Positions 3,193-18,261 of a DNA stretch of 47,961 nt are shown in pieces. This stretch comes from Bacteroidales bacterium (GTDB taxonomy: Bacteria; Bacteroidota; Bacteroidia; Bacteroidales; UBA7960): NCBI GenBank assembly GCA_019429365.1, contig JAHYJD010000015.1, forward strand, positions 1-47,961, in the 5' to 3' direction. Numbering within the stretch: the first letter of the stretch is position 1; every line of letters begins with the position of its first letter. A program made the translations under genes and the position numbers. The notes beneath the pieces are model-generated. The model was not told the DNA's origin. It made no database searches and worked only from the letters and a program-made list of their open reading frames with translations.

Positions 3193-4704
3193 TTAGAACC
3201 GGCTAAAAGGAACTCCATTATTGACCATGATGAGACGGCCATCGGTCATTTCGGCAATTACGTAGTAAACATAAGCAGTTTCCGGAGTGGTACGATTGTC
3301 CGTATAAGTTCCTCTTTCGTTTGCAACAGTGGTAAGCAGTGCGGGTTCATCATCGTTGGTTTGCCTCATAATGCGCAGGTTTTTGACTCCCTCAAGGCTC
3401 AACGGAACCCATTGAAGCAAAATGTTGTTTCCGGCATGGCTGCAAGAAAGCACCAGGCGGGTTTGCCTTAATTGGTTTTCCAGGCTTACTTCCGTTCGTC
3501 TTGCCGAGGGTTTCCCAGCCAGGTTGAGTGCTTCTACCTGGTAAGTGATTTCGCCTTGCTCCTTTATTTTGGTGTCAAGGAAAGTGTTTTCCCATATAGG
3601 CTCCGTATTAATTTTTTCAGGTGGGTTGCCGTTTACTTTTCTGTAAACATTATAGCCACTAGCTCCTTGTATTGGATCATCAGTGGTCCAGAAAAGTCGG
3701 ATTTGCCCTTCGTTCTCAAAACTAAAATCCACTTCGGCTGGTGATGAAGCCAGGATATTCTCGGGAAAGAAAACTAATGTGGTATCGCTGGGTACGCTCT
3801 CGAGGTAACCATCGCTTATGGAAACACAATAATACTCCAAGGTGATAACCGAGTCAGAAACGGGGAGGCTGTCCGTTGCACTTATGAACTCTCCGGGTAA
3901 ATAAAAGGGTGCACCGAGCGGAGAAAAGTCTCCCGTGTTGTTTTCCCGGCGATAAAGCTGGTATCCGAATATATTGTCGCCCATTTTTCTCCAGTTGAGG
4001 TTTATGTGTTGGCCCTGGCGCCGGGCTGAAAACTCAAGGGGGCGCAAAGGGGTTTCTGCGTGGGTGCTGAAACCATGCACCCGGACACTGGGCGGCTGGT
4101 AACCAAAGAAATCATGAATTAGAATGAAGTAAAACCAGGGTTCGTTGGCCCGGGAAACCTGATCCACATAGCTTCGGGCTTCTGCCGGAAGGCGGGTTAC
4201 CAGTTCAAAGCCTTCATCAAAGTTCCTGCTGCGAAAAATGGCTTGGGTGACAACAGTGGCCGGATTGCGTAACTCCCAGGTGAGTTCAATGGCCTTTTCT
4301 CCACGCACTGGCTTGGTGCTTAGATTAAAAACCTCCGGAGGTGCCAAATGGCCAAAGTTGTGGGCAAATAAAATTTCTGAGTTCCTGGAAGTGCCTTCTG
4401 GAGTCTGAATTTGAATGTAATATTGCCAAATACCTTTGGTTGTTAGCGTGGTATCAATAACGCCTAAGGTCAGGGTGTCTCCCAGATGATTAAAAAACTG
4501 GGAGGTTTTAATTTGTTCGAAGGCATCTTGGTTGTGAGGAGACCTGAAAATCTTAAAGTCAAGGATGGTGTCCTGATTGCCCGGTATTTCCCATTGCAAG
4601 GCTGGGGTGTTGGTTTGGCTGTTGCTGCTTTTTGCCCCGATCACCTGCGCTTGCATTGCGGCCGGCAAAAAAATGAACCAGCAGATTATCCATAGTTTTT
4701 TCAT
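3193..4704 (-). CDS. Secreted fibronectin type III repeat protein
   Basis: This 503-residue protein has a signal peptide (MKKLWIICWFIFLPAAMQAQ) and about five tandem FnIII-like modules of roughly 95 residues. Typical features recur: AIELTWELRNPATVV, HINLNWRKMGDNIFGYQLYR, IRLFWTTDDPIQGASGYNVY and ILLQWVPLSLEGVKNLRIMR, each with the W and the YxVYR strand of FnIII folds. There is no catalytic domain, and no obvious type IX sorting domain at the C-terminus (ends VPFSRF). It starts 25 nt after the giant TANFOR-like gene and is last in the three-gene operon. It is probably an exported adhesion or scaffolding protein working with that protein. Surface location is inferred. Confidence 0.85.
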   Translation of the reverse strand: MKKLWIICWFIFLPAAMQAQVIGAKSSNSQTNTPALQWEIPGNQDTILDFKIFRSPHNQDAFEQIKTSQFFNHLGDTLTLGVIDTTLTTKGIWQYYIQIQTPEGTSRNSEILFAHNFGHLAPPEVFNLSTKPVRGEKAIELTWELRNPATVVTQAIFRSRNFDEGFELVTRLPAEARSYVDQVSRANEPWFYFILIHDFFGYQPPSVRVHGFSTHAETPLRPLEFSARRQGQHINLNWRKMGDNIFGYQLYRRENNTGDFSPLGAPFYLPGEFISATDSLPVSDSVITLEYYCVSISDGYLESVPSDTTLVFFPENILASSPAEVDFSFENEGQIRLFWTTDDPIQGASGYNVYRKVNGNPPEKINTEPIWENTFLDTKIKEQGEITYQVEALNLAGKPSARRTEVSLENQLRQTRLVLSCSHAGNNILLQWVPLSLEGVKNLRIMRQTNDDEPALLTTVANERGTYTDNRTTPETAYVYYVIAEMTDGRLIMVNNGVPFSRF

Positions 4705-4729
4705 GACTTGTCAAAAAAGTTTGAATGAA

Positions 4730-7700
4730 TTAATGCGGACTTGCTTGTGGACACTCTGAAAAAGCCTCAACGCTCAAATCCCATTTTAAATTTGACACAT
4801 TAAACTCCGATTCTACCTTAACGCTTATCAGCTTTGAAAACTGCTCTAATAGATAGCTGACTTGTAAAATTTCAAAAACCGGTGCACAATCTCCAGCCAG
4901 AATTGGATTTACTTCTCCTGAGCCACAGGTGTTAATTTTAAATTCTCCATTTTCATAACCACCTTGTATGTCAAACCACAATGAACCCCGGCCACCCACC
5001 AGGCAACTTGGGCCAAATTCAATAGGCGAAAGGTTTTTGGTTCCTGTGATCCACGCATATCCGTATCCGCCAATGCCGTAATTTGATGACCCGAAATCGA
5101 CGTTTACGAACATGCCCAAGCCTGCCACGGCAGAAACATCAAGTAATTGCGAAAAAGGAATTTTGCTATTGAATAGCTCTTTCTCACCAATGACGTAAAG
5201 GCCAGCAAAATTATTGAATTCGGGCAGGTTGTGTTTAAAGTTTGCTCTAACACGAAAAAGGTCCATTTCCTGGATTACATCGGATGCCCCTACCAGCAAA
5301 GCACCTTTGAAACCCGGCATTCCGCCGCCAGGCCCCAGGCCAAAATGCTTCAGGTCGAGCAAAAAATAGTATCCGTTCTTATCGAATCGTACTGTAGCAT
5401 CGCCCTCGTAAATGGTTGCATATCCAAGATTCAGAAAGTTAACGCCTATTTTCCCTAAAAGACTGCCTTCAGTAAAGTTGTAGGTCATGCTCAAATCGCC
5501 AAAAGGGGTGTTAATGTTGCTGACGCTGATTGATTCACCACTGACATCAACCAGCCCGTAAACTTTAAAATCAAGAAGTTTGTCATTCAGCCCGTCAATA
5601 TCTCTTGTGTAGGCATGGTAAGTGAGGGTGTCCCATTTTGCACCTATAACAGACATGATGCCCCCCTCAACCGGCATTTTGTTCTTTCCTGCCGGCATCA
5701 GTTGCATGGTGTTGCCTTTGAAGCCTCTTGAATCAACCTTGATGATTTCAATGTTGCAGGTAGTCGGTGTTTTTGTCAGAAACCCTGTAAATTTAACAGG
5801 GGCTCCGCTTTCATCAGGCGCGGGCTTTATATACAGGTCACCATAGGTGGTGAAAAGATTAGGTGCAAACACCTGGCGGGCGGTATCCTGCATCAGGGCA
5901 AAGTCCACATTGCCATGGGCCCTCACCACATCCTGCAGCGGCTCTATTTTTGGCACCAATTTATTTTTCACTCTCGTGAAATTTATGATGGCATTGGGTG
6001 GACTATATCCCGGAATGCCAAGCTCAGGTCTTCCCTTTAAGGAGAAAAATCCCGGACCGGTCATAATACTTTGAACAGGCACATCCACAATGTTGTAAAA
6101 ACGCAATGTCTGGTTTATGGTTATAGCCTCGGTTTGATTGCTTAAAATCCCAATTGATTCGAACCTGATTTCGGGTGGAACTGTGTACTCGAGGTTTCTT
6201 ACCCTGCCGGCTGCCGTATTGGTGCTTCCAACCAGGCTTATCCGGTAGTGACCTATGCCTTCATCGAAGTTAAACATAGGCTCCAAGGTCCCGGAAAGTT
6301 CCAGGTCGGCAACGCCTCCAAGCGTAAGGCCTCCCTGGAGGTCAATTTGGCCTTCGTTGAGGGATTTGGGCCTTACCCTCATGTTTTTCACCCTGGCATC
6401 TACGCCTCGTCCAGTCACAATTAGCACTTCTTCCAGTACAATGGCATCTTCATTTATGTCGAAGCGCCATGGTTTGGTGGTATTTACCTTCCATTTTTCA
6501 AGTTCGAACGAAAGTTCTCCTCCAGGCGTTTCTTCTATGTTTATGTCGGTATTGTTAATTACCAGGTACCCAACCGGAATTTTCAGGTCGAGCGTTTGGT
6601 TGGGTCCTCCTCCCGGAACCTGCGTGTGTAAAATGGTTTGTAACCGGATGATGCCATTCTCCAGGTAACTATTGCTTAAACTGGCACTCGCCTCAAAATT
6701 AAAGACTTTATAATTCCTTACGGGTCTGGTGCGTAATAGGTTGTTGATGCTAAAGACCTGGTAACGTCTTCCTTGGTTGACAAACGGAATACTGGAATTA
6801 AACACGGTTGCTTTTCCCGAAAGGGTATCCATGCCAATGAAAAGCTGCCCCGAAAACTGTTGGGCAATTTCAAAACTGGCAAGGTCGAGCTTTACCTGTC
6901 CTTCCATTCGTCCCCCGCCACTTCCAAAGGTGACCTTTGTTATGGTGAGTTTCTTTTTTGGCATAAGGCCATAAAACTGGCTGATCCCATAATTATACAA
7001 GGTGCCAGTGTAGTGAGGTCCCACACGAAGCGGAATTTCAAGCGCTTCGGTTTCCAGGTTTTCATTGACAGGCTCAGGGCGATTGTTTGCTCCTTTATAA
7101 ACGTAAAGGTTTTTAAAAGGTATCTTGAGATCGGGATGCAATAGTGAAAATGCGTCTGTAGGTTTGGGGCTGATGAAATACCCACTTAGAATAATGGAAG
7201 GATAAGTATTGCCCGGAAAGATTTTCTCCGTAAAGGAAGTAACGGCAACAGGAAAGCCCCAAATGGAGGAAAAGTCCCAGCCGGTCAGTGGCCTTATGGT
7301 GAAATTTTGGGTCATAGGGCCTATGGGACTCGTCTGTGGATAGCTCACGGTTTGAGTGGTTCCAATGTAGCTTGGATTGTTGCCTTCTTTAATTACCTGA
7401 ACAACAAGCTGGGTGAGGTCATTGGGGATTCCCAACAGCATGTAGTAGCCCTGGGCGTTGGTGGTGGCTTCAATATACAAAGGCATCCCATCGGTATTAA
7501 CCAGTTCTGAAAACACCAGTGCACCTTCCACTGGTTCGCTGGTCCCCTGGGCTGTAACATGCCCATGAATGCTTTTTGCCCTTTTGAGGGTGTAGGCCGG
7601 AAGTTCGTTCCACAAAGGAGTAACCGGAATTTGGACTGGCTCTTGCAATGGCGCATATCCTGCAGGTGGGGTAATTTTTAAAATGAACTGGTCGGCAGCC

Positions 7701-10700
7701 GCAGCAAATTGAAGGCGAGCCTTCCCCTGGGCATCGGTGGTGGCTTCAAAACCGCCAATATTAACTGTTGCACCCTGTATGGCCTGTCCCTGCGGGTTCC
7801 TGATTGTAACTACCGGACGGTGTAAACGGCGGTAAACCTTTATCCTGGCCATCCCTTCCGGTGGGTAAAATGTGGTATCCAACGGAAAATACTGGCTGGA
7901 CAAGGGTTTAACCTCCAACTCCACATTGGCAAGCGGTTGTGCAGGTACCGTGAACACCTGACGAACCACGCTGGCTGCCGGATTTATTGGATTATACTGA
8001 ATGACTTTGAGTTCGGTTTTATAATAAGGCGATTGACCAGACCTTACATAAGCTATCACTGGTTTTCCTTCTTCATCTTCTACATAGCCTGCCATCGTGC
8101 TCAGGGGCTCAAGATTTACGTCCTTGAGGTCCACCAACTCACCAAGTACCAGCTTATAGGGTTTTTGGCCCGTTTCTCCTGCCCCTCCAATTGGAGGGAA
8201 TATGCGAGGTTTGTACAACGGATGTTTTACCATGATTCGCCGGTATATGTGGTTTCCGTTGGCGTCTTTTACAGGCAGATTCGGGAAACGAAAAAAGCCA
8301 TTGTCGAGCCCCGGAGTGGAAGACTCCTGTTTTGAGCACTTCATTAAAAAGCCAGCAAAACTGTTAATTACATTGTCATCGGTCTGGTTTAACAAAGTGA
8401 CCGTTACTCCTGGCAGACCAACGTTTTCGAGATTCGACATGGCCATAGCCCGCCCTTTGATTTCCGGAGGGAGGGGCATAAGCTTATATTCCCTGGTTAT
8501 GGTTGGGATGGTGTATTCGTGATTATAGGTAACCCAACCGATGAAATTTTGCATGGCGCCAACCTGATCATCTGGAAGCCATTCGAACCGGTTCTGGTAA
8601 TTGAAAAAAGTGTTTTCGTAATCCGTATTCAGGAGCTCAACATCGCGAGTTGAAATATCAATATAGTATTGGGGATTGAAATAGGCATGCCTGACCAGGT
8701 TGTAAAGGACTACTTTTCCATTGGTTTCGGTAGTGTCAATGCAAACGTTCTTATACTCCTTGTAATTCATGAAAGTACGCGAGTCAAGACGCTGGCCTTC
8801 GTAATCAATGATTTGTGGAATTTCCATGTCAAGCTTTTCCATGTCTCTGAAAATGCTTACCCTTACCCCTTGTATGCCCGAGTTTGGAGATTTGATTTGA
8901 TCTGGGGTGTCATCGCTTTTCACCTCCACGATCATATTGTAAGTCTTTAATTTGGCCATTTGTACAGGCAACTGAATATTGTCGCCAGGCATGGCAAAAA
9001 TGTCAATATCGGGACTGGCGAATTTCTCGTTTGCAATTTCAATTTTCAGGCATAAATAACCAAAGACTCCTTCGGTCATTAAGGCGCCGCCCAAACTCAT
9101 AACCTGTTGCGGTTGTTGCCCTGGAGTGCTTACAGCATTGTTCCCAACCCCCTGGATACCAGACTGTATGTTTTGCAGGTTTACCCCCGGGAAAACCACT
9201 GCTCCGAAAATGTCTGCCAGCGGATTCTGTGTTTCAACAGCAGGGGGAGCATGCTCCAATTGCTGAATAAAAATGGGGCCTGTCCAGAAGGGTTGAGAAA
9301 AATCAAAAGTGTAATTTCCGCTATCATCGGTGGTGGTTTCATAGATCATTACATTGGCATACTTGCGCCCGTCGCCCCGATATTTCCTGTTCAGATCAAT
9401 GCCGTGAACAAGGGGACCAGTAGTGCCGTAATCAGGAAATTCCACCCCAAAGTCATCATTCATTGCTGCAATCCTTGCCACCAGCCTGACCTTTACGTTG
9501 GCCAGGGGTTTGGTATGTGTAAGGGTTTCGGTGTTCTCAAAAATAAACTTACGGGCGTTCATTTGAGTGATCATTGGCATGCCTCTTTGAAAAAGTTCTT
9601 CGAGCCCCGGCATTGCCTCATAACTTTCTCCGGGAATTATCGCACCATTAGAAATCTGGTGGTAGTTTATGTTGTTGCTTTGTGTTGAAGCTATTTGATT
9701 AATCGCATTGAAACTGAAGCCCCAGCTTCCACTAATGGCTGTTGAAGTCAGGGTGCTTGTGCCAGATGTTGTTCCTCCTGAGGGGATTGAAATGGGTGTT
9801 GTTGGGAAGTTTGCAGAGCCGAAACCTGGCAGGTTGTTGAGGTCAATGGGATCGTGCGGGCTTGTGGGGTATTTTGCCATGAGTTTTCCACTTATTCTTG
9901 TGGGCAGGGCAAATTCAAAATCCTCAGGCAGGAGGTTGGGCGGGTAAAATTGTTCCTGTACTATGGGTGTTTTAATAATCGGGTCGCTGCCATATTTAAA
10001 ACTGCACACCTCGCTCATGCCCTGGTTTCGAAAATTGTATCGCCCCCGAGGGTCGAAGGCTGTTACTGCAAAGGCAAAGGTTCTGCCCGGGGTCAGGGCA
10101 GGCTGGGCAGGGCCGTACAGAAACACATTGCCGGTTACCGTGGTTTCGAAAAAGATGGGCGAACTGGCCGATTTAAAGGCATCGTAAATGTTGTGGCCAT
10201 CGGGTATGACTTCCACTATTTTTAAGCGGTACTGAGTTAAGGGGGATGCCCCTGCCGGCATGGTCCATGAAAAAACGATATTCTGGGGAGTCATTGGGGT
10301 GATTTCTTCGTGGCATAATGGCTGGAGAATAATGGGCGCTTCGAGGCTGGATACTCTGAATACAGGGCTGCACCCAAAGGGTTCTCCCTGCGAAACCATT
10401 TGGCCGTCTTCATAAGAATAGGCCACAAAACAAATCTGGTAATCATCCTCGGGCAAGCCACTCCCGTAAAACGCCTCATTGGGGGTTATCCCCAGAAAAT
10501 TTAAATTGTTCTCGTTAAATAATTCCTGAAGCTGGCTAAGATTTAGCCTTTGTATCGTGCCCGGAGTGAGTCTTATGGGATTGGCTGGCCGGAACTCTGG
10601 CTTTGATTGAATTGTGATTTCATTGGCACCCGATATGGTGGCATGCAGATAAATATCGAGGTTTATTAAATCAATAAGACTGGTCTGAATCGTTACAATC

Positions 10701-10894
10701 AGTTTATTTGGGTTGCTGGTATAATCGCTGAGCCTGGGCGAGTATGGCGGGGCCACCATCACATTTACCTGCACCGGATAGAATTGGGCATAAACCCCGT
10801 TGCCAGTTAGCAAGTTTAAGAAGAGGAAAAGCAAAAAATACCTGGTTGTGGTTGCTGATAAACCGCTGGCTATTTGTTTAAAATGTGAAAACAT
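4730..10894 (-). CDS. Giant secreted TANFOR-like multidomain protein
   Basis: This 2054-residue exported protein has a signal peptide ending GNGVYAQ at about residue 36. Residues ~37-180 (starting FYPVQVNVMVAPPYSPRLSD) resemble the TANFOR domain found at the N-terminus of very large Bacteroidota proteins; I recognise this from memory. An FnIII-like domain follows at ~183-300 (IVFSWTMPAGASP). Residues ~460-1170 hold a series of carboxypeptidase-regulatory/Cna-B-like beta domains (GVRVSIFRDM, LPGVTVTLLNQ, EATTDAQGKARL, ATTNAQGYYML). The last ~800 residues are beta-rich and glycine-rich, ending with a cysteine-containing tail. No protease or glycosidase signature and no clear type IX sorting domain were seen. 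Its ATG overlaps the upstream barrel gene by 17 nt, indicating translational coupling. Function unknown; a surface adhesin or filament is a guess. Confidence 0.88.
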   Translation of the reverse strand: MFSHFKQIASGLSATTTRYFLLFLFLNLLTGNGVYAQFYPVQVNVMVAPPYSPRLSDYTSNPNKLIVTIQTSLIDLINLDIYLHATISGANEITIQSKPEFRPANPIRLTPGTIQRLNLSQLQELFNENNLNFLGITPNEAFYGSGLPEDDYQICFVAYSYEDGQMVSQGEPFGCSPVFRVSSLEAPIILQPLCHEEITPMTPQNIVFSWTMPAGASPLTQYRLKIVEVIPDGHNIYDAFKSASSPIFFETTVTGNVFLYGPAQPALTPGRTFAFAVTAFDPRGRYNFRNQGMSEVCSFKYGSDPIIKTPIVQEQFYPPNLLPEDFEFALPTRISGKLMAKYPTSPHDPIDLNNLPGFGSANFPTTPISIPSGGTTSGTSTLTSTAISGSWGFSFNAINQIASTQSNNINYHQISNGAIIPGESYEAMPGLEELFQRGMPMITQMNARKFIFENTETLTHTKPLANVKVRLVARIAAMNDDFGVEFPDYGTTGPLVHGIDLNRKYRGDGRKYANVMIYETTTDDSGNYTFDFSQPFWTGPIFIQQLEHAPPAVETQNPLADIFGAVVFPGVNLQNIQSGIQGVGNNAVSTPGQQPQQVMSLGGALMTEGVFGYLCLKIEIANEKFASPDIDIFAMPGDNIQLPVQMAKLKTYNMIVEVKSDDTPDQIKSPNSGIQGVRVSIFRDMEKLDMEIPQIIDYEGQRLDSRTFMNYKEYKNVCIDTTETNGKVVLYNLVRHAYFNPQYYIDISTRDVELLNTDYENTFFNYQNRFEWLPDDQVGAMQNFIGWVTYNHEYTIPTITREYKLMPLPPEIKGRAMAMSNLENVGLPGVTVTLLNQTDDNVINSFAGFLMKCSKQESSTPGLDNGFFRFPNLPVKDANGNHIYRRIMVKHPLYKPRIFPPIGGAGETGQKPYKLVLGELVDLKDVNLEPLSTMAGYVEDEEGKPVIAYVRSGQSPYYKTELKVIQYNPINPAASVVRQVFTVPAQPLANVELEVKPLSSQYFPLDTTFYPPEGMARIKVYRRLHRPVVTIRNPQGQAIQGATVNIGGFEATTDAQGKARLQFAAAADQFILKITPPAGYAPLQEPVQIPVTPLWNELPAYTLKRAKSIHGHVTAQGTSEPVEGALVFSELVNTDGMPLYIEATTNAQGYYMLLGIPNDLTQLVVQVIKEGNNPSYIGTTQTVSYPQTSPIGPMTQNFTIRPLTGWDFSSIWGFPVAVTSFTEKIFPGNTYPSIILSGYFISPKPTDAFSLLHPDLKIPFKNLYVYKGANNRPEPVNENLETEALEIPLRVGPHYTGTLYNYGISQFYGLMPKKKLTITKVTFGSGGGRMEGQVKLDLASFEIAQQFSGQLFIGMDTLSGKATVFNSSIPFVNQGRRYQVFSINNLLRTRPVRNYKVFNFEASASLSNSYLENGIIRLQTILHTQVPGGGPNQTLDLKIPVGYLVINNTDINIEETPGGELSFELEKWKVNTTKPWRFDINEDAIVLEEVLIVTGRGVDARVKNMRVRPKSLNEGQIDLQGGLTLGGVADLELSGTLEPMFNFDEGIGHYRISLVGSTNTAAGRVRNLEYTVPPEIRFESIGILSNQTEAITINQTLRFYNIVDVPVQSIMTGPGFFSLKGRPELGIPGYSPPNAIINFTRVKNKLVPKIEPLQDVVRAHGNVDFALMQDTARQVFAPNLFTTYGDLYIKPAPDESGAPVKFTGFLTKTPTTCNIEIIKVDSRGFKGNTMQLMPAGKNKMPVEGGIMSVIGAKWDTLTYHAYTRDIDGLNDKLLDFKVYGLVDVSGESISVSNINTPFGDLSMTYNFTEGSLLGKIGVNFLNLGYATIYEGDATVRFDKNGYYFLLDLKHFGLGPGGGMPGFKGALLVGASDVIQEMDLFRVRANFKHNLPEFNNFAGLYVIGEKELFNSKIPFSQLLDVSAVAGLGMFVNVDFGSSNYGIGGYGYAWITGTKNLSPIEFGPSCLVGGRGSLWFDIQGGYENGEFKINTCGSGEVNPILAGDCAPVFEILQVSYLLEQFSKLISVKVESEFNVSNLKWDLSVEAFSECPQASPH

Positions 10895-12569
10895 AGGTCA
10901 TGTCTCCTTTTGTTTCGTTGAATTTTTGGGTGGTAATACCATCAGGATTCGAAGAATTGATGTAGTAGAGGTTAAACCTTAAAGCATGGTTTCGCGCAAC
11001 CTGGTAGGTCGAATTTACCGAGCTGTTGATTACCCGGCCTTTTCCAAGGTCTTGATCGGTTTGTATATAACTGTTGTTCCAGCCAAGCATTAATTTACCT
11101 TCCAGGAATGATTTGGAAGCACCAAACGTAAACCCGATGGCTTCGCTTGAAACAAGGGCGTTTTTAAGCTCGTTGTAATTGGCCCCGATCAGAAACGAAA
11201 GACCATGCTGGAGCAGGCTGAAGTTGTAATTAAAGTTTGCCAGCAGGGCCTGGTTTTCAGTAAATTGACTTGTAAATACATTATTGTCCCTTAGTTCCAT
11301 TCGGCCCACCATCAGCATGAACATGTGATTGTATTTCATGCCGGAAAACATCAACCTGGGCATAATGCTTAAGTTGTGGGTGGTTTGAAATAGTTTAAGG
11401 GAGTCGATAAGGGGAACCCTGCCTGCGCGTTGGTTGCTGGCATAATTGCTGTAATTAAGGTCGATGCCGAAAATGTGTGAAGGATTGTAGGATGCATTCA
11501 GCGAGGAAATGGTGCGCAGGGAGGTGGCTTTTTTGGTATTTTGAAGGTTGTCGCGCTGAAGGCCAATGCTTCCCCTTAAGTTCAGCTTACGGTTCATTAG
11601 AGATAAACCGGGTGCAATGGTAATGTTTTCAATATCGTTGTTCAGGTAATAGGTGCCCATGGATCGGTACCCCGGATCAACGCGGCGGTATTCGAGCCGG
11701 GTGTTGAAATTTTTCTGGGTGTAATTCACCGAAGAGCGAATGGCTGTTAGCAGATCCGTTGATTGGTTTACCGCCATGAACCGCTCAGCTTCCTTATAGA
11801 TTTTCCTGTTCTCTAAACTATCAAAGTTTTCAATTGGCACTGCTGATACATCAGTTGTATACACACTCAATGCCATTTCACTTTCAAAGGAAAAATTTTC
11901 TGAAAGCTGAATACGGGTATTAAAGCCCGTTACCAGGTTTTCTTCGGCCGGTGTATACTGGCCGCTTGGCTGCAGCACGGTTGTGCTGTCGTCTTTGATT
12001 TTCAGCATAATTAAATCGAAAAAGGTCTTTTCAGAGCCTATTCCAATTTTGGTGGCAAACCCTTTACGAGTAAGGGTGCTGGTGGTGTCGATGGCTTGCT
12101 CAAAGGCAGTGGTGGCCTTTTTGAAACGGCCATAAACGAGTCCAAAGCGGAATTTTCCCGGATTGAGCTCTAACCCGCCCCCGAGAAACTTGTGCCCGCC
12201 CATGGTGTAGTTGCTGAAATTTACACTGCTGTAGCCAATATGGGCTTTGGCCCATTTGTAGGTAGGTCTCAGACCAAATTGATTGAAGGGTTGGCTGTAA
12301 TCAGCCCGTTTATTGCTGAAACGAAAACTGAAAGGCATGGAAATGCCGTAAAAGGAGGCTGTGGCATTGGCCGAAAGCATCAGCGAGAAGGGGTCGCCCC
12401 GTGCAACTATTCCGTTTGCATTGTAGCCTATAAGGTTGGCCGAGAAGTTGCCGTGAAAGGAAAACGCCTGCTGGCTGCCCAGCCCTTCCAGCTGCTGCCC
12501 TGCAGCCAAAGCCGGACATAAAACCCACAATGCCAGCAATAAAGAACACGTTCGATAGCTGTGTTTCAT
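10878..12569 (-). CDS. Outer-membrane beta-barrel protein of the TANFOR operon
   Basis: I place the start at 12569, giving 563 residues with a clean signal peptide (MKHSYRTCSLLLALWVLCPA, cut near LAAGQ). The frame extends 47 codons further upstream, but that part has no signal-like or coding character. The mature chain has alternating amphipathic strands rich in Tyr, Phe, Asn and Ser (SFHGNFSANLIGYNANG, FGLVYGRFKKATTAF, RGSIGLQRDNLQN, HALRFNLYYINSS). It ends in a terminal aromatic, YVFTF, typical of barrels recognised by the BAM complex. It is the first gene of the operon and overlaps the giant secreted protein gene by 17 nt. It may be the translocon or membrane anchor for that protein (inference); the family is uncharacterised as far as I know. 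Confidence 0.85.
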   Translation of the reverse strand: MKHSYRTCSLLLALWVLCPALAAGQQLEGLGSQQAFSFHGNFSANLIGYNANGIVARGDPFSLMLSANATASFYGISMPFSFRFSNKRADYSQPFNQFGLRPTYKWAKAHIGYSSVNFSNYTMGGHKFLGGGLELNPGKFRFGLVYGRFKKATTAFEQAIDTTSTLTRKGFATKIGIGSEKTFFDLIMLKIKDDSTTVLQPSGQYTPAEENLVTGFNTRIQLSENFSFESEMALSVYTTDVSAVPIENFDSLENRKIYKEAERFMAVNQSTDLLTAIRSSVNYTQKNFNTRLEYRRVDPGYRSMGTYYLNNDIENITIAPGLSLMNRKLNLRGSIGLQRDNLQNTKKATSLRTISSLNASYNPSHIFGIDLNYSNYASNQRAGRVPLIDSLKLFQTTHNLSIMPRLMFSGMKYNHMFMLMVGRMELRDNNVFTSQFTENQALLANFNYNFSLLQHGLSFLIGANYNELKNALVSSEAIGFTFGASKSFLEGKLMLGWNNSYIQTDQDLGKGRVINSSVNSTYQVARNHALRFNLYYINSSNPDGITTQKFNETKGDMTYVFTF

Positions 12570-12783: not shown

Positions 12784-13506
12784 TTAATCCTTTATGCAGC
12801 GAACAGCGTGCCCTGCAATTTTCCCCTGTCTTTCAATATAGGCGTTGCTGTTATTGGCTATCAGTGTCAAAATCCATGAATCCTCGGGGCTTTCAGGCGT
12901 TGCACTCCACCAAATGGCATAGAAGCTGGGAGGGTTAAAAGCCTCGGTCCGGAAACCACCCGGAAGTGCTGTAAACCCGTAGTTATCAGATGCCCCGGTA
13001 TTTGGCCCATTCCAATGGACCGTTCCTTTTTCTTTCAACCTGTTCCCTGCCTCATTTTCTCCGCCAGCAAAATTCACCAGTGTGTTCCATTCATTTTTTG
13101 TGGGGACGTGCCAGCCTGTGGGGCATAGTTGTCGGGAATCATTCACTGCAAACCAGTTGTACAGAAGCCCGTAAGTATCCGTCCAGGAAGCCATGTTCTC
13201 ATAATGGCAAAAAGCGCCTTCCGTGGCAATGAGCCAGGGAGTCCAGAGGGTTACATTGGGTATTGGATCTCCGTTACGGTATTTTGTGGTTTTGAGGTTT
13301 TCTTTCATCCAAACTTGCGTACCGATCTTAACGGTCTCGTAAACATTGCCATCGATGTCTGTTACACTTGGCTGGGGGTCTTCATCCTGGTCTTTTTTGC
13401 AAGCATGGTTGCCCAAGAGCAGAAAAGCTGCAAAAAGTATTGTGAGCAATAGGCGGAAGGTTTTTTTGGGAGCACTCATGGTAAAAGATTTTATGTTTTT
13501 CAGCAT
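12784..13506 (-). CDS. FISUMP-domain lipoprotein
   Basis: This 240-residue predicted lipoprotein has a basic n-region, a hydrophobic stretch (FRLLLTILFAAFLLLGN) and a cysteine followed by KKDQDED, a likely lipidation site although the -3 to -1 residues (NHA) are not a textbook lipobox. The rest is one FISUMP domain (Fibrobacter succinogenes major paralogous domain): GNVYETVKIGTQVWMKENLK, YGLLYNWFAV, CPTGWHVPT, WWSAT and the closing AVRCIKD. These domains are related to the C-lectin/SUMF fold and their role is unknown. Two starts are possible, 13506 or 13479; I keep the first because AGGAA precedes it. It lies 6 nt after the DNRLRE-type lipoprotein gene and is probably cotranscribed with it. 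Confidence 0.88.
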   Translation of the reverse strand: MLKNIKSFTMSAPKKTFRLLLTILFAAFLLLGNHACKKDQDEDPQPSVTDIDGNVYETVKIGTQVWMKENLKTTKYRNGDPIPNVTLWTPWLIATEGAFCHYENMASWTDTYGLLYNWFAVNDSRQLCPTGWHVPTKNEWNTLVNFAGGENEAGNRLKEKGTVHWNGPNTGASDNYGFTALPGGFRTEAFNPPSFYAIWWSATPESPEDSWILTLIANNSNAYIERQGKIAGHAVRCIKD

Positions 13507-13512
13507 GCCGAA

Positions 13513-14214
13513 TTATTCCTTGTTCTTATAATGATATTTAATGGTCAGTTGTGGGCGGTAGTCTGGCCTGGCGGTTTCATCGCCCGAGAAAATGGCCCAG
13601 ATGCCGCTTGAAAGGGGGGAGGGGAGATTTACATTGCCATCTGGAATGAATTGCAGCCTGAATTGGAATTTGGTGAAGGTCGGGTAAGTCTTAAGGAAGT
13701 TATTTAATGTTGTGGTGAGGTTCAAAGGGTACTCCTTCAATACATTATAACCCCAGGTGGCAATGGTTCCGCAGTCAGCCAGGGGAATAAGGTCGTAAGC
13801 AGAAGCATCGAGCGAACCATACATGACCATAAAACAGTTCACAACTCTTGTGCCCGCGCCATCAAAGGGGTGCATATTGGTGTTAGATTCGTATACTTTC
13901 AGAATGGCTTCATCAATAATGAGTTCCCGGTTAGACCCGGGCATAATGTCCGAAACATCAAAGCTGATGAAGCTGCGCATGCTATGACCGGTGGCGTTCC
14001 AGCCTATCAGCAGCGATTTTCCCTGTGAGTGGCTGTAGAAATCGTGCACCACCCGGTTCGATAAATTTTCAATGTAGCCATCGTCTCCTCCCAGCGAAAC
14101 GAAGGTTTCAATTTTGGTTGCCACTATGCTGCCATCATCCGACTCGCACGCAGCTAAAAGCATCATGCTGAAAATGGCAAGTGATACAAGAAGTGCAATT
14201 GGTTTTGTTTTCAT
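13513..14214 (-). CDS. DNRLRE-type lipoprotein
   Basis: This 233-residue lipoprotein has an N-terminus MKTKPIALLVSLAIFSMMLL followed by AAC, a good lipobox, and then an acidic ESDDGS linker. The body resembles DNRLRE/CBM96-like beta-sandwich domains: RSFISFDVSDIMPG, then a strand reading IIDEAILKVYESN, and a closing RPDYRPQLTIKYHYK. That assignment rests on motif resemblance. I start at 14214 rather than four codons upstream because the signal peptide begins there. It is upstream of the FISUMP gene with a 6-nt gap, so the two surface lipoproteins are likely made together. The response regulator gene lies upstream on the same strand with a 112-nt gap. Confidence 0.82.
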   Translation of the reverse strand: MKTKPIALLVSLAIFSMMLLAACESDDGSIVATKIETFVSLGGDDGYIENLSNRVVHDFYSHSQGKSLLIGWNATGHSMRSFISFDVSDIMPGSNRELIIDEAILKVYESNTNMHPFDGAGTRVVNCFMVMYGSLDASAYDLIPLADCGTIATWGYNVLKEYPLNLTTTLNNFLKTYPTFTKFQFRLQFIPDGNVNLPSPLSSGIWAIFSGDETARPDYRPQLTIKYHYKNKE

Positions 14215-14326
14215 AATACCCGGCATTTATGATTAAACTGACAAAATCAAATATCAGCCAACTTTTTATGCCGGGCAATGATGAATGAGTAAAAAGGGGG
14301 TTTGGGTTAGCAAACAGCGAATGAAC

Positions 14327-15091
14327 TCAGGCTCTCAATATGGTCATTAGCTCCGCCTTTTTGTTTTTCGAAACGCACAGCTCCCTGCCATCCGACATGA
14401 CCACCGAGCCGCCGTCGCCTTTGTTGTACCTGACAATTTCGTGAATATTGACAAGGAAAGAGTGATGAATCCGGAAGAAATAATGGGCGTGCAGGCGTTC
14501 TTCCACGTATTTTATGGTTTTCGAAACCAACAATTTTTTTCCGCCTCTCAGGTGAAGATGCACATAATTGCTGTCACCTATCAGGTATAAGATGTCTTGT
14601 TCGTTCAAAATTTCCAATCCATTGTTGGTGGGTAAGGCTATTTTTGCAAAGTGGTTGTTGCCCTGCTGCAGGTTTTCAAGAAGTACATTTAAATATTCGG
14701 TGTTGGAGTGAATGGCCTGGGAGTTTTTTTTCATTTTAATGCGCTCTTCAACGGTTTTAACCGCCTGAACAAGCTCAGTGCGGTCGATGGGTTTCAGCAA
14801 ATAATCGGCAGCGCTTACCTTAAAAGCTTTGATGGCGTAATTGTCGTAGGCAGTGGTAAATATAATCTCGAAATTCACCTCTTCCAGCATGCTGAGCAAA
14901 TCGAAGCCGTTCATCTTGGGCATGGCGATGTCCAGAAAAATGAGTTCGGGCTGATGAATGTGGATGGATTTCAAGCCACATTCGCCGCTCAGGCAGGTGT
15001 CGGTAACGGTAACCTGGGGGCAATATTTCTTAATCAAAATCGATAAGGCATCAATACAATGTTGCTCATCATCTATAATCAGGGCTTTCAT
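14327..15091 (-). CDS. LytTR-family response regulator
   Basis: This 254-residue regulator has an N-terminal receiver (residues 1-120) with acidic pocket D7/D8, phosphoacceptor D54 in LIFLDIAMPKMNG, a Thr near 80 in IIFTTAYDN, and K100 in DYLLKP. The C-terminal LytTR DNA-binding domain (~150-250) includes ILYLIGDSNYVHLHLRG, FFRIHHSFLVNIHEI and a closing LCVSKNKKAELM. It is the partner of the sensor kinase 5 nt upstream; this LytS-like kinase/LytTR pairing is usual in Bacteroidota. Its targets are unknown. The lipoprotein pair directly downstream is the nearest candidate, though LytTR sites could not be assigned confidently. Confidence 0.95.
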   Translation of the reverse strand: MKALIIDDEQHCIDALSILIKKYCPQVTVTDTCLSGECGLKSIHIHQPELIFLDIAMPKMNGFDLLSMLEEVNFEIIFTTAYDNYAIKAFKVSAADYLLKPIDRTELVQAVKTVEERIKMKKNSQAIHSNTEYLNVLLENLQQGNNHFAKIALPTNNGLEILNEQDILYLIGDSNYVHLHLRGGKKLLVSKTIKYVEERLHAHYFFRIHHSFLVNIHEIVRYNKGDGGSVVMSDGRELCVSKNKKAELMTILRA

Positions 15092-15096
15092 GGCAG

Positions 15097-18000
15097 TTAA
15101 ATTGTGGTTATCAAGGGCAGCATGATGGTGATCTTCGTTCCTGCAGGCTGGTGATGGTGATCGTGCAAATCGGTGATCGATATTTTTGCATCGCTGCTGT
15201 ACAAGCTTTTAATGATGGCAATCCGGTCGGCGGTAATCGACATTCCTACCGATTTGTTTTCCGGAGTGAATTGGCTTTTGAATTCGGCAGCTTTTTTTCT
15301 TCCCACCCCATTGTCCTGGATTTTAAAAATGATGTGCTGCCCGTTTTTTTGTGCCGAAACCTCAATTTTGCCCCTGGTCTCCTTGTGAAGCAGGCCGTGC
15401 CAGACGGCATTCTCCACATAGGGTTGAAGCAGCAGCGGGGGCACATACACCCGGTTGGTGTCAAGAAACTTGTCGGTCTTAATTGAAAAATCAAACCGGT
15501 TGTCAAACCTGAGTTGTTCCAGCTCCAGGTAAATCTTCAGGGCATCCAACTCATCTTCAAGGCAAACCAGCTTGTGCTTGGCGTTATTCAAAACCGCGCG
15601 TATCAGTCGGGCAAATTTATTCAGGTAATCCGAGGCAGCTTCGGTCTTGTTTTTTAAAATAAAGGTGTTGATGCTGTTGAGCGAGTTGAAAATGAAATGC
15701 GGGTTCATTTGCGCCCTGAGCGACTGCATTTCCACTTCGGCAATCTTTTTCTCGAAGTCTGATTTGATCTTTTCCTGACTTCTTATTCTGCTTACCCTGT
15801 AGCGGAAAACCCCAAATATTATCAGTAAGCCCACTAAAAAAGCAGCAATATAAAACCAGGCCGTTTGATAGAAAAAGGGCTTTATGGTAAATTCCACTCC
15901 CGCTTCTTGATCAAACCATAAACCCCTGTGAGCCGCCTTCACCACAAAGCGGTATTTTCCCGGAGGCAGATTGGTGTAATTGGCCATGCCTGGTGCCGTG
16001 GTTATGCTTTTTTGATCGTCATAACCCAACAGCTGGTATTCATACTGAATACGGTCGGCATCCTGAAAACAAATGGCAGTAAAACGCAACCTGACATTTC
16101 TTTCGGAAGGCTTCAATATGAAAGAGGCATTGTGCCGCCCAGGACCAAGTTGGATGATTCTTTCGCCATTCACCTCAATGTCCTCAATAATGAGGTTTAT
16201 AATATTTTTCGAAACATTCAGGGCGGAAATATTTTGGCTTTCGTAAGCACCGGTGCCGGTAAGGTAAATATTGTCTTCCCAGTCGATAAAAATCCGGTCG
16301 TCATGCGATTTCAACTCATGCAAGCCGTTTCTTTTATCAAAGGCATTAAACTGCTCGGTGTAAGGGTTGAAAAAGAGGAGGCCTTCGTTTATTATCCAGA
16401 AATTATGGTTTAAGTCTTGTGCAATTCGCGAAACATTGGGGTCGTTGAGACCATGCACGGTGTGAAACAGTTTAAATGAAATTTCATCCTCGACTTCTGT
16501 GATTCGAAGCAGCCCCTTGCCGGCAATACAAGCCCAGATTCTTCCCAAGCTGTCGGAGGCAAACCCCTGGACGGTTTGGTCCCTGATGCCCAAGTTTTTC
16601 AACCCATTGGGGAATTCCGTAATAAACCTTTCGGCCTCAATGTCATAAACCCCGAAGCCGTCGTATGAACCAATCCAGAGCCGGTTTTTGGGGTCCACCA
16701 TCAGGTCGTTGTAAAACCTGCTTTTGAATAAACTGCCTGGATCGCCCGGATCATGTTGCAGGTAACGCACCGTTTTCCGGTCTTTGTCAATTCGAATCAG
16801 ACCATAGCGCGGGGCCGAAATCCAAAGGTTGTGGTTTTGGTCTTCCACGATCTCGCGCAGAAAGGTAGTGGTGTCATTAAAGGAGATGAATTGGTTGTCG
16901 CCGTCATGAAACACCCTTAAAGACTGGCTTGCCGGGTCAAGATACAATAAATGGTTTCTAAGGCTGGTGGCCCAGATCACGCCCTTGTGGTCGCGGAAAA
17001 TGGAATAAATTCTTGCATTCGGTTTTACACCCTCCGAATCTTTTATAAAACCCCAATCGCCGGTTTTTACATCTTTAAAAATGATGTTGTGCCTGCTGTC
17101 AGTACCCAGGTAAAGCATGTCTTCACTTTCGGCCCGAAAAATGCTGCGTATGGTTTCAATTCCGTAAGGCAAAACCTGCCTTTGAAACGAGCGGTAGGCG
17201 TTGTCCAGAAAATTCAGGCCTTCCTTGCCACCCACCCACAAATTGCCATTCTTGTCAATTAAAATATTGCATTGCAGGTAGTTCGACAGCAGTGACCTGG
17301 GGTTGGTGTCGGATTTCGGATATGCCCGGAATGTCCTGGTTTCTTTGTTGAAAACCACCAGGCCTTCACCAACCGTGGCAAGCCAAAGCTCCTCATCGTT
17401 TTTCCTTTCAATAAAAAGTATGGTGAGAAGGTCTTTTTCAGACGTAGTAAATATTTCCCATTCCATGGTTACCAGGTTCAGTTTTTTTAGTCCCGTGCCC
17501 CATTCGCCAGTCCAAAGCACTGAGTCACCATCGAAAAAAAGCGACTGTGAAGCGGGTCGGTGACCGGCATCCTTTTCCGGTTCCATAACAACCGAATGCG
17601 TTTTCTTATCAATGAATAAAATGCCTCCCTGGGTGCTTGCCACGATCTGATCCTTGTTGCGCGGGTGGGCATCGACCTGGTAAACCCATGAAAGGAGGCT
17701 TTCGCCTGGGAGGCTTTTTTCATCTGCCTGAAGCATCCAGGTAATTCTGTCGCTTTTTCGGTCAAAATGTGCCAGACCGTTGGAAGTGGCAATCCAAATG
17801 CTGCCATCGGTATCCTCAAAAAAGTAATGAACCTCTACCGCCGGAAATTGATGTTTATGGCTGGCAAATGGATAGTAATTGGTAAAAACATCCAAAACAG
17901 GATCATAGATGGAAAAGCCATTGTTGGTGCCAACCCACAGCAAGGAATCATGGCTTTCGAAGATGGTAAGGACCATGTTGTCAGAAAGTGAAAACGGATC

Positions 18001-18261
18001 TTCAGGATTGTGATTGAAAACCTTCATAGAATGCCCGTCGTACCTGGCCAGCCCGTTGTCGGTGGCTATCCAAATATAACCTGAAGCATCCTGGGTAACC
18101 CATCGAACCACATCCGATGGCAACCCATCCTCCTTGGTGAAATGCCTGAAATAAAGGGTTCCTGCCGCACCGTGAGCCATATCCGGCACTTGCGAAAAAA
18201 TCTTGGTTGCCAGCAATAACAAAAGCAAAGCAATCGGAACTGCTGTGGAATTCCTTTTCAC
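15097..18261 (-). CDS. Periplasmic-propeller sensor histidine kinase (Reg_prop, Y_Y_Y, HisKA_7TM-like/LytS-type)
   Basis: This 1054-residue sensor begins with GTG at 18259-18261; no in-frame ATG precedes a signal peptide ending KIFSQ at about residue 24. Repeated Reg_prop propeller blades follow (GLPSDVVRWVTQDASGYIWI, LLWVGTNNGFSIYD, NLWVGGKEGLNFL) to about residue 700, then a Y_Y_Y domain (~720-795). One membrane helix is at ~802-822. The cytoplasmic LytS-type kinase has the phosphorylated H855 in QMNPHFIFNSLNSI, an N-box PYVENAVWHGL and a G-box QDNGVGR. It probably senses a periplasmic ligand, often a glycan for propeller sensors, and phosphorylates the LytTR regulator next door. Unlike hybrid two-component systems, receiver and DNA-binding parts are on a separate protein. 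Confidence 0.95.
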   Translation of the reverse strand: MKRNSTAVPIALLLLLLATKIFSQVPDMAHGAAGTLYFRHFTKEDGLPSDVVRWVTQDASGYIWIATDNGLARYDGHSMKVFNHNPEDPFSLSDNMVLTIFESHDSLLWVGTNNGFSIYDPVLDVFTNYYPFASHKHQFPAVEVHYFFEDTDGSIWIATSNGLAHFDRKSDRITWMLQADEKSLPGESLLSWVYQVDAHPRNKDQIVASTQGGILFIDKKTHSVVMEPEKDAGHRPASQSLFFDGDSVLWTGEWGTGLKKLNLVTMEWEIFTTSEKDLLTILFIERKNDEELWLATVGEGLVVFNKETRTFRAYPKSDTNPRSLLSNYLQCNILIDKNGNLWVGGKEGLNFLDNAYRSFQRQVLPYGIETIRSIFRAESEDMLYLGTDSRHNIIFKDVKTGDWGFIKDSEGVKPNARIYSIFRDHKGVIWATSLRNHLLYLDPASQSLRVFHDGDNQFISFNDTTTFLREIVEDQNHNLWISAPRYGLIRIDKDRKTVRYLQHDPGDPGSLFKSRFYNDLMVDPKNRLWIGSYDGFGVYDIEAERFITEFPNGLKNLGIRDQTVQGFASDSLGRIWACIAGKGLLRITEVEDEISFKLFHTVHGLNDPNVSRIAQDLNHNFWIINEGLLFFNPYTEQFNAFDKRNGLHELKSHDDRIFIDWEDNIYLTGTGAYESQNISALNVSKNIINLIIEDIEVNGERIIQLGPGRHNASFILKPSERNVRLRFTAICFQDADRIQYEYQLLGYDDQKSITTAPGMANYTNLPPGKYRFVVKAAHRGLWFDQEAGVEFTIKPFFYQTAWFYIAAFLVGLLIIFGVFRYRVSRIRSQEKIKSDFEKKIAEVEMQSLRAQMNPHFIFNSLNSINTFILKNKTEAASDYLNKFARLIRAVLNNAKHKLVCLEDELDALKIYLELEQLRFDNRFDFSIKTDKFLDTNRVYVPPLLLQPYVENAVWHGLLHKETRGKIEVSAQKNGQHIIFKIQDNGVGRKKAAEFKSQFTPENKSVGMSITADRIAIIKSLYSSDAKISITDLHDHHHQPAGTKITIMLPLITTI

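What the first reader, a model, noticed from the sequence alone, without database searches (positions are those of the whole stretch)
3193..12569. Three-gene operon of barrel, 2054-residue TANFOR-like protein and FnIII protein
An outer-membrane barrel gene overlaps by 17 nt a gene for a signal-peptide-bearing giant protein, followed 25 nt later by a secreted FnIII protein. Tight coupling of a barrel with a ~220 kDa beta-rich exported protein suggests a dedicated surface assembly or secretion unit. No enzymatic domain and no type IX sorting domain is evident, so how the large protein crosses the outer membrane is open. I recall similar gene sets in other Bacteroidota, but no described function.
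Basis: partly seen in the sequence, partly recalled or inferred. Interest (0 to 1): 0.65.

Follow-up and report, generated by a model that had tools for sequence, protein, structure and literature searches.

The report
Outer-membrane barrel paired with giant protein
Many Bacteroidota bacteria carry a three-gene unit in which a wide outer-membrane barrel is paired with a giant exported protein whose front domain (TANFOR) sometimes occurs fused to the barrel itself, which suggests that this domain docks on the barrel and that the barrel helps put the giant on the cell surface.

Summary
The three genes are real and as described: barrel (B), 2054-aa TANFOR protein (T), FnIII protein (F). They form a widespread Bacteroidota cassette. 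The genome has a second copy in the same order; in all 80 named relatives fetched, a TANFOR gene directly follows B. In 395 phylum genomes, all 87 with a strong barrel match also have TANFOR. In eight genomes one ORF runs signal peptide-TANFOR-barrel, so the two very probably belong together physically. B models as a plugless barrel of about 25 strands, nearest to MtrB. TANFOR proteins were described in 2020 as polymorphic toxins and possible type IX substrates (PMC7073777); its main text never uses the word 'barrel'. This T shows no toxin domain or immunity gene; its last 750 residues hold a module found in 52 of 159 distinct T ORFs. No T (135 scanned) or F (54) has a type IX sorting domain, though 100 of 101 TANFOR genomes have SprA. 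Best reading: T docks through TANFOR in B and is displayed outward. Whether it crosses through B or the type IX translocon is open but testable.

The parts
10878..12569 (-). B: outer-membrane barrel gene, 563 aa, about 25 predicted strands, no plug domain; ends in Phe
   Evidence: family alignments A1, A3, A6
10878..10894 (-). 17-nt overlap of B stop and T start (translational coupling inferred)
   Evidence: over 131 distinct B-T pairs the median gap is -4 nt and 126 are <=100 nt (longest-ORF gene caller, so overlaps are somewhat overstated)
4730..10894 (-). T: giant exported TANFOR protein, 2054 aa
10352..10774 (-). TANFOR domain of T (aa 41-181), the domain found fused to the barrel elsewhere
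10040..10303 (-). FnIII-like domain directly after TANFOR (aa 198-285); part of the conserved N-terminal module
   Evidence: fn3 E 0.015, below cut-off; alignment A2
7397..7573 (-). CarboxypepD_reg-like domain of T (aa 1108-1166); a second, weaker one near aa 1034-1083
   Evidence: VIA-align Z 9.8 to a carboxypeptidase D chain, 80 aligned, rmsd 1.8
4895..6997 (-). C-terminal beta module of T (aa 1300-2000), found to its end in 52 of 159 distinct TANFOR ORFs, with a long antiparallel meander at its end; 54 residues follow it
3193..4704 (-). F: secreted FnIII protein, 503 aa
   Evidence: F recognised after T in 69 of 80 named loci, 8 others end in or just after T
14327..15091 (-). LytTR response regulator upstream; possible regulator, link statistical only
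15097..18261 (-). Reg_prop/Y_Y_Y/His_kinase sensor kinase upstream; possible regulator, link statistical only

Best explanation
A conserved barrel-TANFOR-FnIII cassette for putting a giant protein on the cell surface. All three products enter the periplasm by Sec (inferred from signal peptides read by eye). B folds into a wide plugless barrel in the outer membrane (predicted). The TANFOR-FnIII module at the N-terminus of T docks in or at the periplasmic mouth of B (inferred from gene fusions, co-occurrence and correlated divergence). The rest of T, C-terminal to the dock, points outward through or beside B, so that B is conduit and anchor (inferred). F is a secreted accessory of the exposed part (guess). 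In this genome T ends in a shared beta module rather than a recognised toxin, so it most likely serves as a structural or adhesive surface protein; in a few relatives the C-terminus carries a nuclease toxin domain.
For: Second copy B-T-F in the same genome, F cut by the contig end. 80 of 80 named loci (the best 80 of 356 relatives) have T directly after B; in one (L205) T is a short contig-end fragment with a weaker match and in a few T is split into two ORFs. 87 of 87 genomes with a strong barrel match have TANFOR. Eight single ORFs of signal peptide-TANFOR(-Fn)-barrel, seven of them beside a recognised T or F (the first also). B and T N-terminus divergence correlates at r 0.88 over 80 loci (maximum of 999 permutations 0.08), against 0.47 for B and F over 69 loci. 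B model pLDDT 83.9, no plug; nearest solved fold MtrB, Z 18.8, 442 residues aligned, rmsd 5.5, next AlgE 15.9. Nuclease toxin domains at the C-terminus of a few T (Pfam AHH, LHH, colicin-type DNase, one each in 135) would place that end outward if they act as toxins. No type IX CTD in 135 T or 54 F.
Against: No complex, surface location or secretion was measured; no two-protein model could be run. The N-terminus of an even-stranded barrel is normally periplasmic (general knowledge), so TANFOR in the fusions could be a purely periplasmic domain. B has no recognised translocation domain or energy source. 100 of 101 TANFOR genomes have SprA, which fits type IX export at least as well. Five fetched barrels have no recognised T or F beside them on their strand (L083, L095, L110, L114, L122), though their genomes have TANFOR elsewhere. 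TANFOR genes of L064, L065 and L069 adjoin other large genes, not a barrel, and 14 of 101 TANFOR genomes lack a strong barrel match. At the looser threshold 1e-6, 161 genomes match the barrel profile and at least 60 of the 74 extra ones have no TANFOR match; I took these weaker, often partial matches for other barrels, and drew the 1e-45 line after seeing the list. F is not recognised in 3 named loci where sequence continues (L151, L176, L196). Correlated divergence is also expected from joint vertical descent.
Confidence: 0.47

Rival explanations
1. T is a type IX secretion substrate with a signal other than the known CTDs; it crosses through SprA, and B only holds it at the surface afterwards, as PorP and SprF are thought to do for type B CTD proteins.
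For: 100 of 101 TANFOR-positive genomes have SprA against 302 of 395 overall; PMC7073777 reports the same trend (>95%) and hypothesises type IX export; PorP-PG1035 and SprF-SprB complexes (PMC9143113, abstract read); own genome has 67 CTD matches.
Against: No CTD in 135 T or 54 F. Of the 93 SprA-negative genomes 20 are listed and 13 of these are of one family, f19, so the correlation may be largely phylogenetic. SprA was not found in the window's own draft genome, which has two cassettes, but warns that its search rang in no control, and an incomplete assembly explains it as well. TANFOR sits at the N-terminus, not the C-terminus.
Confidence: 0.35
2. T stays in the periplasm as a long beta bridge docked on an outer-membrane barrel, like TamB on TamA (recalled), and serves envelope or lipid transport.
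For: T C-half is one long nearly all-beta run (pLDDT 82.6); its Foldseek hits under 0.001 are mostly LptD chains, after a teneurin, and ApoB follows, all at very low TM-score; in the fusions TANFOR precedes the barrel and so would be periplasmic.
Against: T has a cleavable-looking signal peptide and no evident inner-membrane anchor; a few relatives end in nuclease domains, others run to more than 6000 aa; whole-model TM-scores are 0.13 or less.
Confidence: 0.1
3. T is a polymorphic toxin, as proposed for TANFOR proteins, with an unrecognised toxin at its end and F or a neighbour as immunity partner.
For: TANFOR homology; the 2020 paper found many toxin C-termini (PMC7073777).
Against: No toxin family in the last 300 aa; the C-terminal module is shared, with a median of 49 and at most 222 residues beyond it in 53 T ORFs (the profile was built from 39 of these sequences); no cytoplasmic small gene follows, F has a signal-peptide-like start.
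Confidence: 0.04
4. Three neighbouring envelope genes with no functional link.
For: None beyond the absence of experiments and the few loci in which the partners are not adjacent.
Against: Conserved order, co-occurrence and fusions.
Confidence: 0.02

Closest known systems
TANFOR (TIGR02542) polymorphic toxins of Bacteroidetes, Jana, Salomon and Bosis 2020 (PMC7073777)
   Same: N-terminal TANFOR domain after a signal peptide, large size, FnIII genes nearby, occurrence in genomes with type IX secretion
   Different: This T shows no toxin domain and no immunity gene, ends in a shared beta module, and belongs with a barrel; the word 'barrel' does not occur in the main text of that paper (supplements not readable here)
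PorP/SprF outer-membrane proteins with type B CTD partners (PG1035, SprB)
   Same: Outer-membrane barrel bound to a large surface protein (PMC9143113, abstract); works-like comparison
   Different: SprF has 14 strands (PMC12611786, passage), B about 25; no PorP/SprF model was listed for B and no CTD for T
MtrB of the Mtr complex (PDB 6r2q chain B)
   Same: Nearest solved fold to B; a wide barrel that holds another protein in its lumen (its 26 strands and cytochrome content are recalled)
   Different: 12% identity over the match, no MtrB/PioB family hit, no cytochrome gene seen in the cassette
Two-partner secretion and chaperone-usher pores (TpsB, FimD/PapC)
   Same: Outer-membrane pore paired with a large beta-rich exported partner (recalled for TpsB); FimD and PapC chains are among the following fold matches (Z 13.8-15.4)
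   Different: No POTRA or usher domain listed for B; TANFOR is not a known TPS domain

Membership tests
TANFOR domain TIGR02542 | Score over the curated cut-off (67 bits) | tested here: not met
   51.9 bits, E 7.5e-14; none of 395 phylum genomes passes it either. Treated as a divergent homologue, not a formal member.
TANFOR domain TIGR02542 | Full-length domain near the N-terminus of a large protein | tested here: met
   Residues 41-181 cover model positions 4-144 of 145; alignment A2
TANFOR polymorphic toxins | C-terminal toxin domain | tested here: not met
   No family in the last 300 aa; shared module instead. A toxin of an undescribed family cannot be excluded by such scans.
TANFOR polymorphic toxins | Downstream immunity gene (for antibacterial members) | tested here: not met
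   The next gene is the FnIII protein F with a signal-peptide-like start
Type IX secretion substrates | Type A or type B C-terminal domain | tested here: not met
   No TIGR04183 or TIGR04131 listed for window T and F or for 135 T C-termini and 54 F
Type IX secretion substrates | Secretion depends on SprA/PorV | not testable with these tools
   Needs mutants
PorP/SprF family | Match to its family model | tested here: inconclusive
   No PorP/SprF model listed for the window barrel or for 67 barrels; that NCBIfam holds such a model is recalled, not checked
PorP/SprF family | 14 strands | tested here: not met
   25 strands of 8 or more residues in the model; prediction only
MtrB/PioB barrels | Same fold: plugless barrel of about 26 strands | tested here: inconclusive
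   Best match Z 18.8, TMq 0.52, rmsd 5.5 over 442 residues; strand number uncertain by one or two
MtrB/PioB barrels | Sequence family match and multihaem cytochrome partner | tested here: not met
   No such Pfam hit listed at E <= 1 (presence of the model in Pfam recalled); no haem-binding partner seen by reading the cassette translations
Two-partner secretion | POTRA domains on the pore, TPS domain on the partner | tested here: not met
   No such Pfam hit listed for B or T at E <= 1 (presence of the models in Pfam recalled)

The most novel reading that the evidence does not exclude
An undescribed outer-membrane export and display system of Bacteroidota: a wide plugless barrel carries a dedicated giant protein whose N-terminal TANFOR domain is both address label and plug, independently of the type IX translocon, and TANFOR toxins are one special use of it.
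Probability: 0.25. Interest if true: 0.88.

Novelty: new variant of a known kind. Interest (0 to 1): 0.66.

Why it matters
TANFOR proteins were found in 101 of 395 sampled Bacteroidota genomes (89 of them at E <= 1e-20), and the named loci range from Tannerella to Pedobacter and Spirosoma, yet how these proteins leave the cell is unknown; the one paper found on them hypothesises type IX export without a known signal. A near-constant, unnamed barrel partner with natural TANFOR-barrel fusions gives a concrete candidate for the exit or anchor and turns the question into a simple gene-deletion experiment. It also separates a toxin-free group of TANFOR proteins from the described toxins.

Tried and rejected
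TANFOR as toxin in this window: rejected on the C-terminus. Type IX CTD on T or F: not found. Genes between T and F as immunity genes: 17 such genes after 16 T ORFs, some of them long or probable gene-caller artefacts; of the 12 translations printed, 11 begin with a signal-peptide-like stretch by eye (the exception is L112), and 10 scanned gave one Pfam hit, far below its cut-off, so classical cytoplasmic immunity is unlikely for most. A solved-structure relative by sequence: none convincing for B or TANFOR; for the T C-half only weak matches of its CarboxypepD_reg stretch. Whole-fold match for the T C-half: none; the porin-like Z of about 11 covers only its last 280 residues and I read it as a long antiparallel sheet, not as proof of a second barrel, since T has four cysteines there and no terminal aromatic residue. 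TIGR02542 itself as a survey probe: insensitive (10 of 395 genomes at 1e-5, against 101 at 1e-6 with profile A2).

Dropped or limited rows: phylum barrel matches weaker than 1e-45 (74 of 161 genomes) left out of the co-occurrence count. One search covers 80 named loci and 84 barrel ORFs of the unnamed loci plus window: of the 84, 54 are followed by T, 1 by F, 7 end at a contig edge (one of them preceded by F) and 22 have another gene next (7 preceded by F; L070 and L118 preceded by T; L111 and L124 with one gene between F and B; L115 and L136 in the order B-x-F-T; L053-L055 at a contig start; L097 a second barrel fragment; L083, L095, L110, L114, L122 without a recognised partner beside them). 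Three unnamed barrels (L042, L062, L084) are the same as named ones, so 162 T ORFs are 159 distinct, the 135 scanned T C-termini 131 distinct, the 54 F 53 distinct. T C-termini scanned: ORFs over 800 aa with an intact 3' end. F scanned: 53 of 107 complete ones of 450-780 aa, plus the window's. A6 used 66 of 80 named barrels plus the window; A5 38 named T C-halves plus the window. The 80 named loci are the best of 356 and were found with motifs chosen from window-like barrels, so they lean towards close relatives.
Full report
What is there. On the minus strand lie a barrel gene B (10878-12569), a 2054-aa giant T (4730-10894) that overlaps it by 17 nt, and an FnIII gene F (3193-4704) 25 nt further on. 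T matches the TANFOR model over its full length but below the curated cut-off (51.9 against 67 bits) and has CarboxypepD_reg domains; B has no family; F has fn3 just over its cut-off. Downstream lie what read by eye as ribosomal protein genes; upstream are two further exported-looking proteins, a LytTR response regulator and a sensor kinase.

It is a widespread cassette. The same genome has a second copy on another contig, barrel 577 aa, TANFOR giant 2185 aa and an FnIII gene cut by the contig end, in the same order. In the family, 14 of 47 genomes match the barrel. Of the 20 family loci fetched, 8 show T after B, 3 show F before B, and the other nine end at a contig edge on the side where a partner would be expected; in three of these (L053-L055) the gene on the open side is neither T nor F. 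In the phylum, a barrel profile matches 161 and a TANFOR profile 101 of 395 genomes at E <= 1e-6; the TIGR02542 model alone finds 10 at 1e-5. Keeping barrel matches of E <= 1e-45, 87 genomes remain and all 87 have TANFOR. Fourteen TANFOR genomes lack such a barrel; 12 of these have TANFOR matches weaker than 1e-20, one (G242) has the barrel in fused form, one (G356) has none. The 1e-45 line was drawn after seeing the list. Among the 80 named loci (the best of 356 relatives; Pedobacter, Mucilaginibacter, Sphingobacterium, Spirosoma, Hymenobacter, Runella, Chryseolinea, Tannerella and many Bacteroidales) 80 have T directly after B and 69 a recognised F after T; 8 of the other 11 end in or just after T. 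Among 84 barrel ORFs of the unnamed loci and the window, 54 are followed by T; other orders are T-F-B (e.g. L056, L125, L126, L133, L135, L141) and B-x-F-T (L115, L136), and five have no recognised partner beside them (L083, L095, L110, L114, L122). B-T gaps have a median of -4 nt over 131 distinct pairs; F follows T directly in 105 of 123 T-F pairs found.

TANFOR and barrel belong together. Eight genomes from five family labels carry one ORF that runs signal peptide, TANFOR(-Fn), barrel: L134, L225, L226, L227, L228, L229, L230, L231 (863 to 1016 aa; L134; signal peptides by eye). Beside it a separate T was recognised in six and an F in five; L227 shows F only and L231 neither. Whether the fusions arose once or several times was not tested. 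Divergence of B and of the N-terminal part of T correlates at r 0.88 over 80 loci (78 named, the window and its paralogue; permutation maximum 0.08), more than B with F (0.47, 69 loci); common descent contributes, and FnIII repeats align less well.

Structure. B models at pLDDT 83.9, pTM 0.72, with 25 strands of 8 or more residues and no plug. Foldseek and VIA-align put MtrB first (TMq 0.52; Z 18.8, 442 aligned, rmsd 5.5), then AlgE, a 2191-residue chain of a type IX complex (8gl6_A) and PapC, within a crowd of other barrels. A pore of this size without its own plug would leak, so something should fill it; TANFOR is the obvious candidate (inference). The T C-half (aa 1090-2054) models at pLDDT 82.6, pTM 0.52, as one nearly all-beta run ending in long antiparallel strands with no whole-fold match.

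Two kinds of TANFOR proteins. The N-terminal module is in all 162 T ORFs by construction; the middle varies; the C-terminal module of the window T is reached to its end in 53 of 162 ORFs (52 of 159 distinct; 51 of 131 distinct ORFs over 1000 aa with an intact 3' end), with a median of 49 and at most 222 residues beyond it. The profile was built from 39 of these sequences. Only a few of 135 T C-termini carry a recognised nuclease toxin (Pfam AHH 1, LHH 1, colicin-type DNase 1; NCBIfam T6SS-type DNase 1, perhaps one of the same proteins); toxins of undescribed families would be missed. So the 2020 description of TANFOR proteins as polymorphic toxins (PMC7073777; abstract, introduction, first results section, type IX section and search passages read) may cover a minority of what the wider profile finds. 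The main text of that paper never uses the word barrel; its neighbourhood test counted known conserved domains, and B has none. 'TANFOR domain' occurs in one paper of the library; the wider word search is swamped by the name Tanford (20 of 1,070 listed). The listings showed no paper on a barrel partner of TANFOR proteins; the library holds open-licence papers only, and supplements were not readable here.

Type IX link. 100 of 101 TANFOR genomes have SprA against 302 of 395 overall; the exception is the window's own draft genome, where a second model also found none, in a search that rang in no control, although it has 67 CTD matches. Of the 93 SprA-negative genomes 20 are listed, 13 of them from one family, so this is weak as independent evidence. 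No T (0 of 135) or F (0 of 54) has a CTD. Precedent for a barrel holding a large surface protein is PorP/SprF with type B CTD proteins (PMC9143113, abstract), but SprF has 14 strands (PMC12611786, passage) and no PorP/SprF model was listed for 67 barrels.

Regulation. In 38 of 81 cassette loci a response-regulator- or kinase-like gene lies within four genes upstream of B; such genes make up 49 of 218 (22%) of the three nearest upstream genes, 39 of 326 (12%) further upstream and 5 of 106 (4.7%) downstream.

Reading. Shown: the cassette, its conservation, co-occurrence, fusions, lack of CTD, lack of a recognised toxin in this T. Predicted: barrel fold and size, beta-rich T. Inferred: TANFOR docks on B; T faces outward; F is an accessory. 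Open: whether T crosses through B or through the type IX translocon.

Noticed in passing
window 14327-18261: LytTR response regulator and Reg_prop/Y_Y_Y sensor kinase upstream; in 38 of 81 cassette loci such a gene lies within four genes upstream of B: 22% of the three nearest upstream genes, 12% further upstream, 4.7% downstream.
   Followed up: partly
window 12784-14226: FISUMP-domain lipoprotein-like gene and a DNRLRE-like exported protein between the regulator and B; genes of that size and strand are not seen upstream of B in the nearest relative L142.
   Followed up: no
L084, L150, L165, L171, L173, L200, L202, L208, L209, L221: A gene of 174-359 aa with a signal-peptide-like start sits between T and F; no convincing Pfam family in the eight of these ten that were scanned.
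   Followed up: partly
L115 2289-15066 and L136 2227-15864: Variant order B, 1093-1104 aa protein, F, T; T of L136 shows an AHH motif near its end.
   Followed up: no
L112 13608-16067, L116 2416-4866: Barrels with a C-terminal extension of about 270 aa; no Pfam match in L112, L116 not scanned.
   Followed up: no
L130 1341-19901: TANFOR protein of more than 6100 aa, cut by the stretch end (open frame 6423 aa).
   Followed up: no
L233 1975-6321 and L234 6998-8167: Short TANFOR-like proteins of 366 and 389 aa in distant relatives, the first near a weakly matching 798-aa barrel.
   Followed up: no
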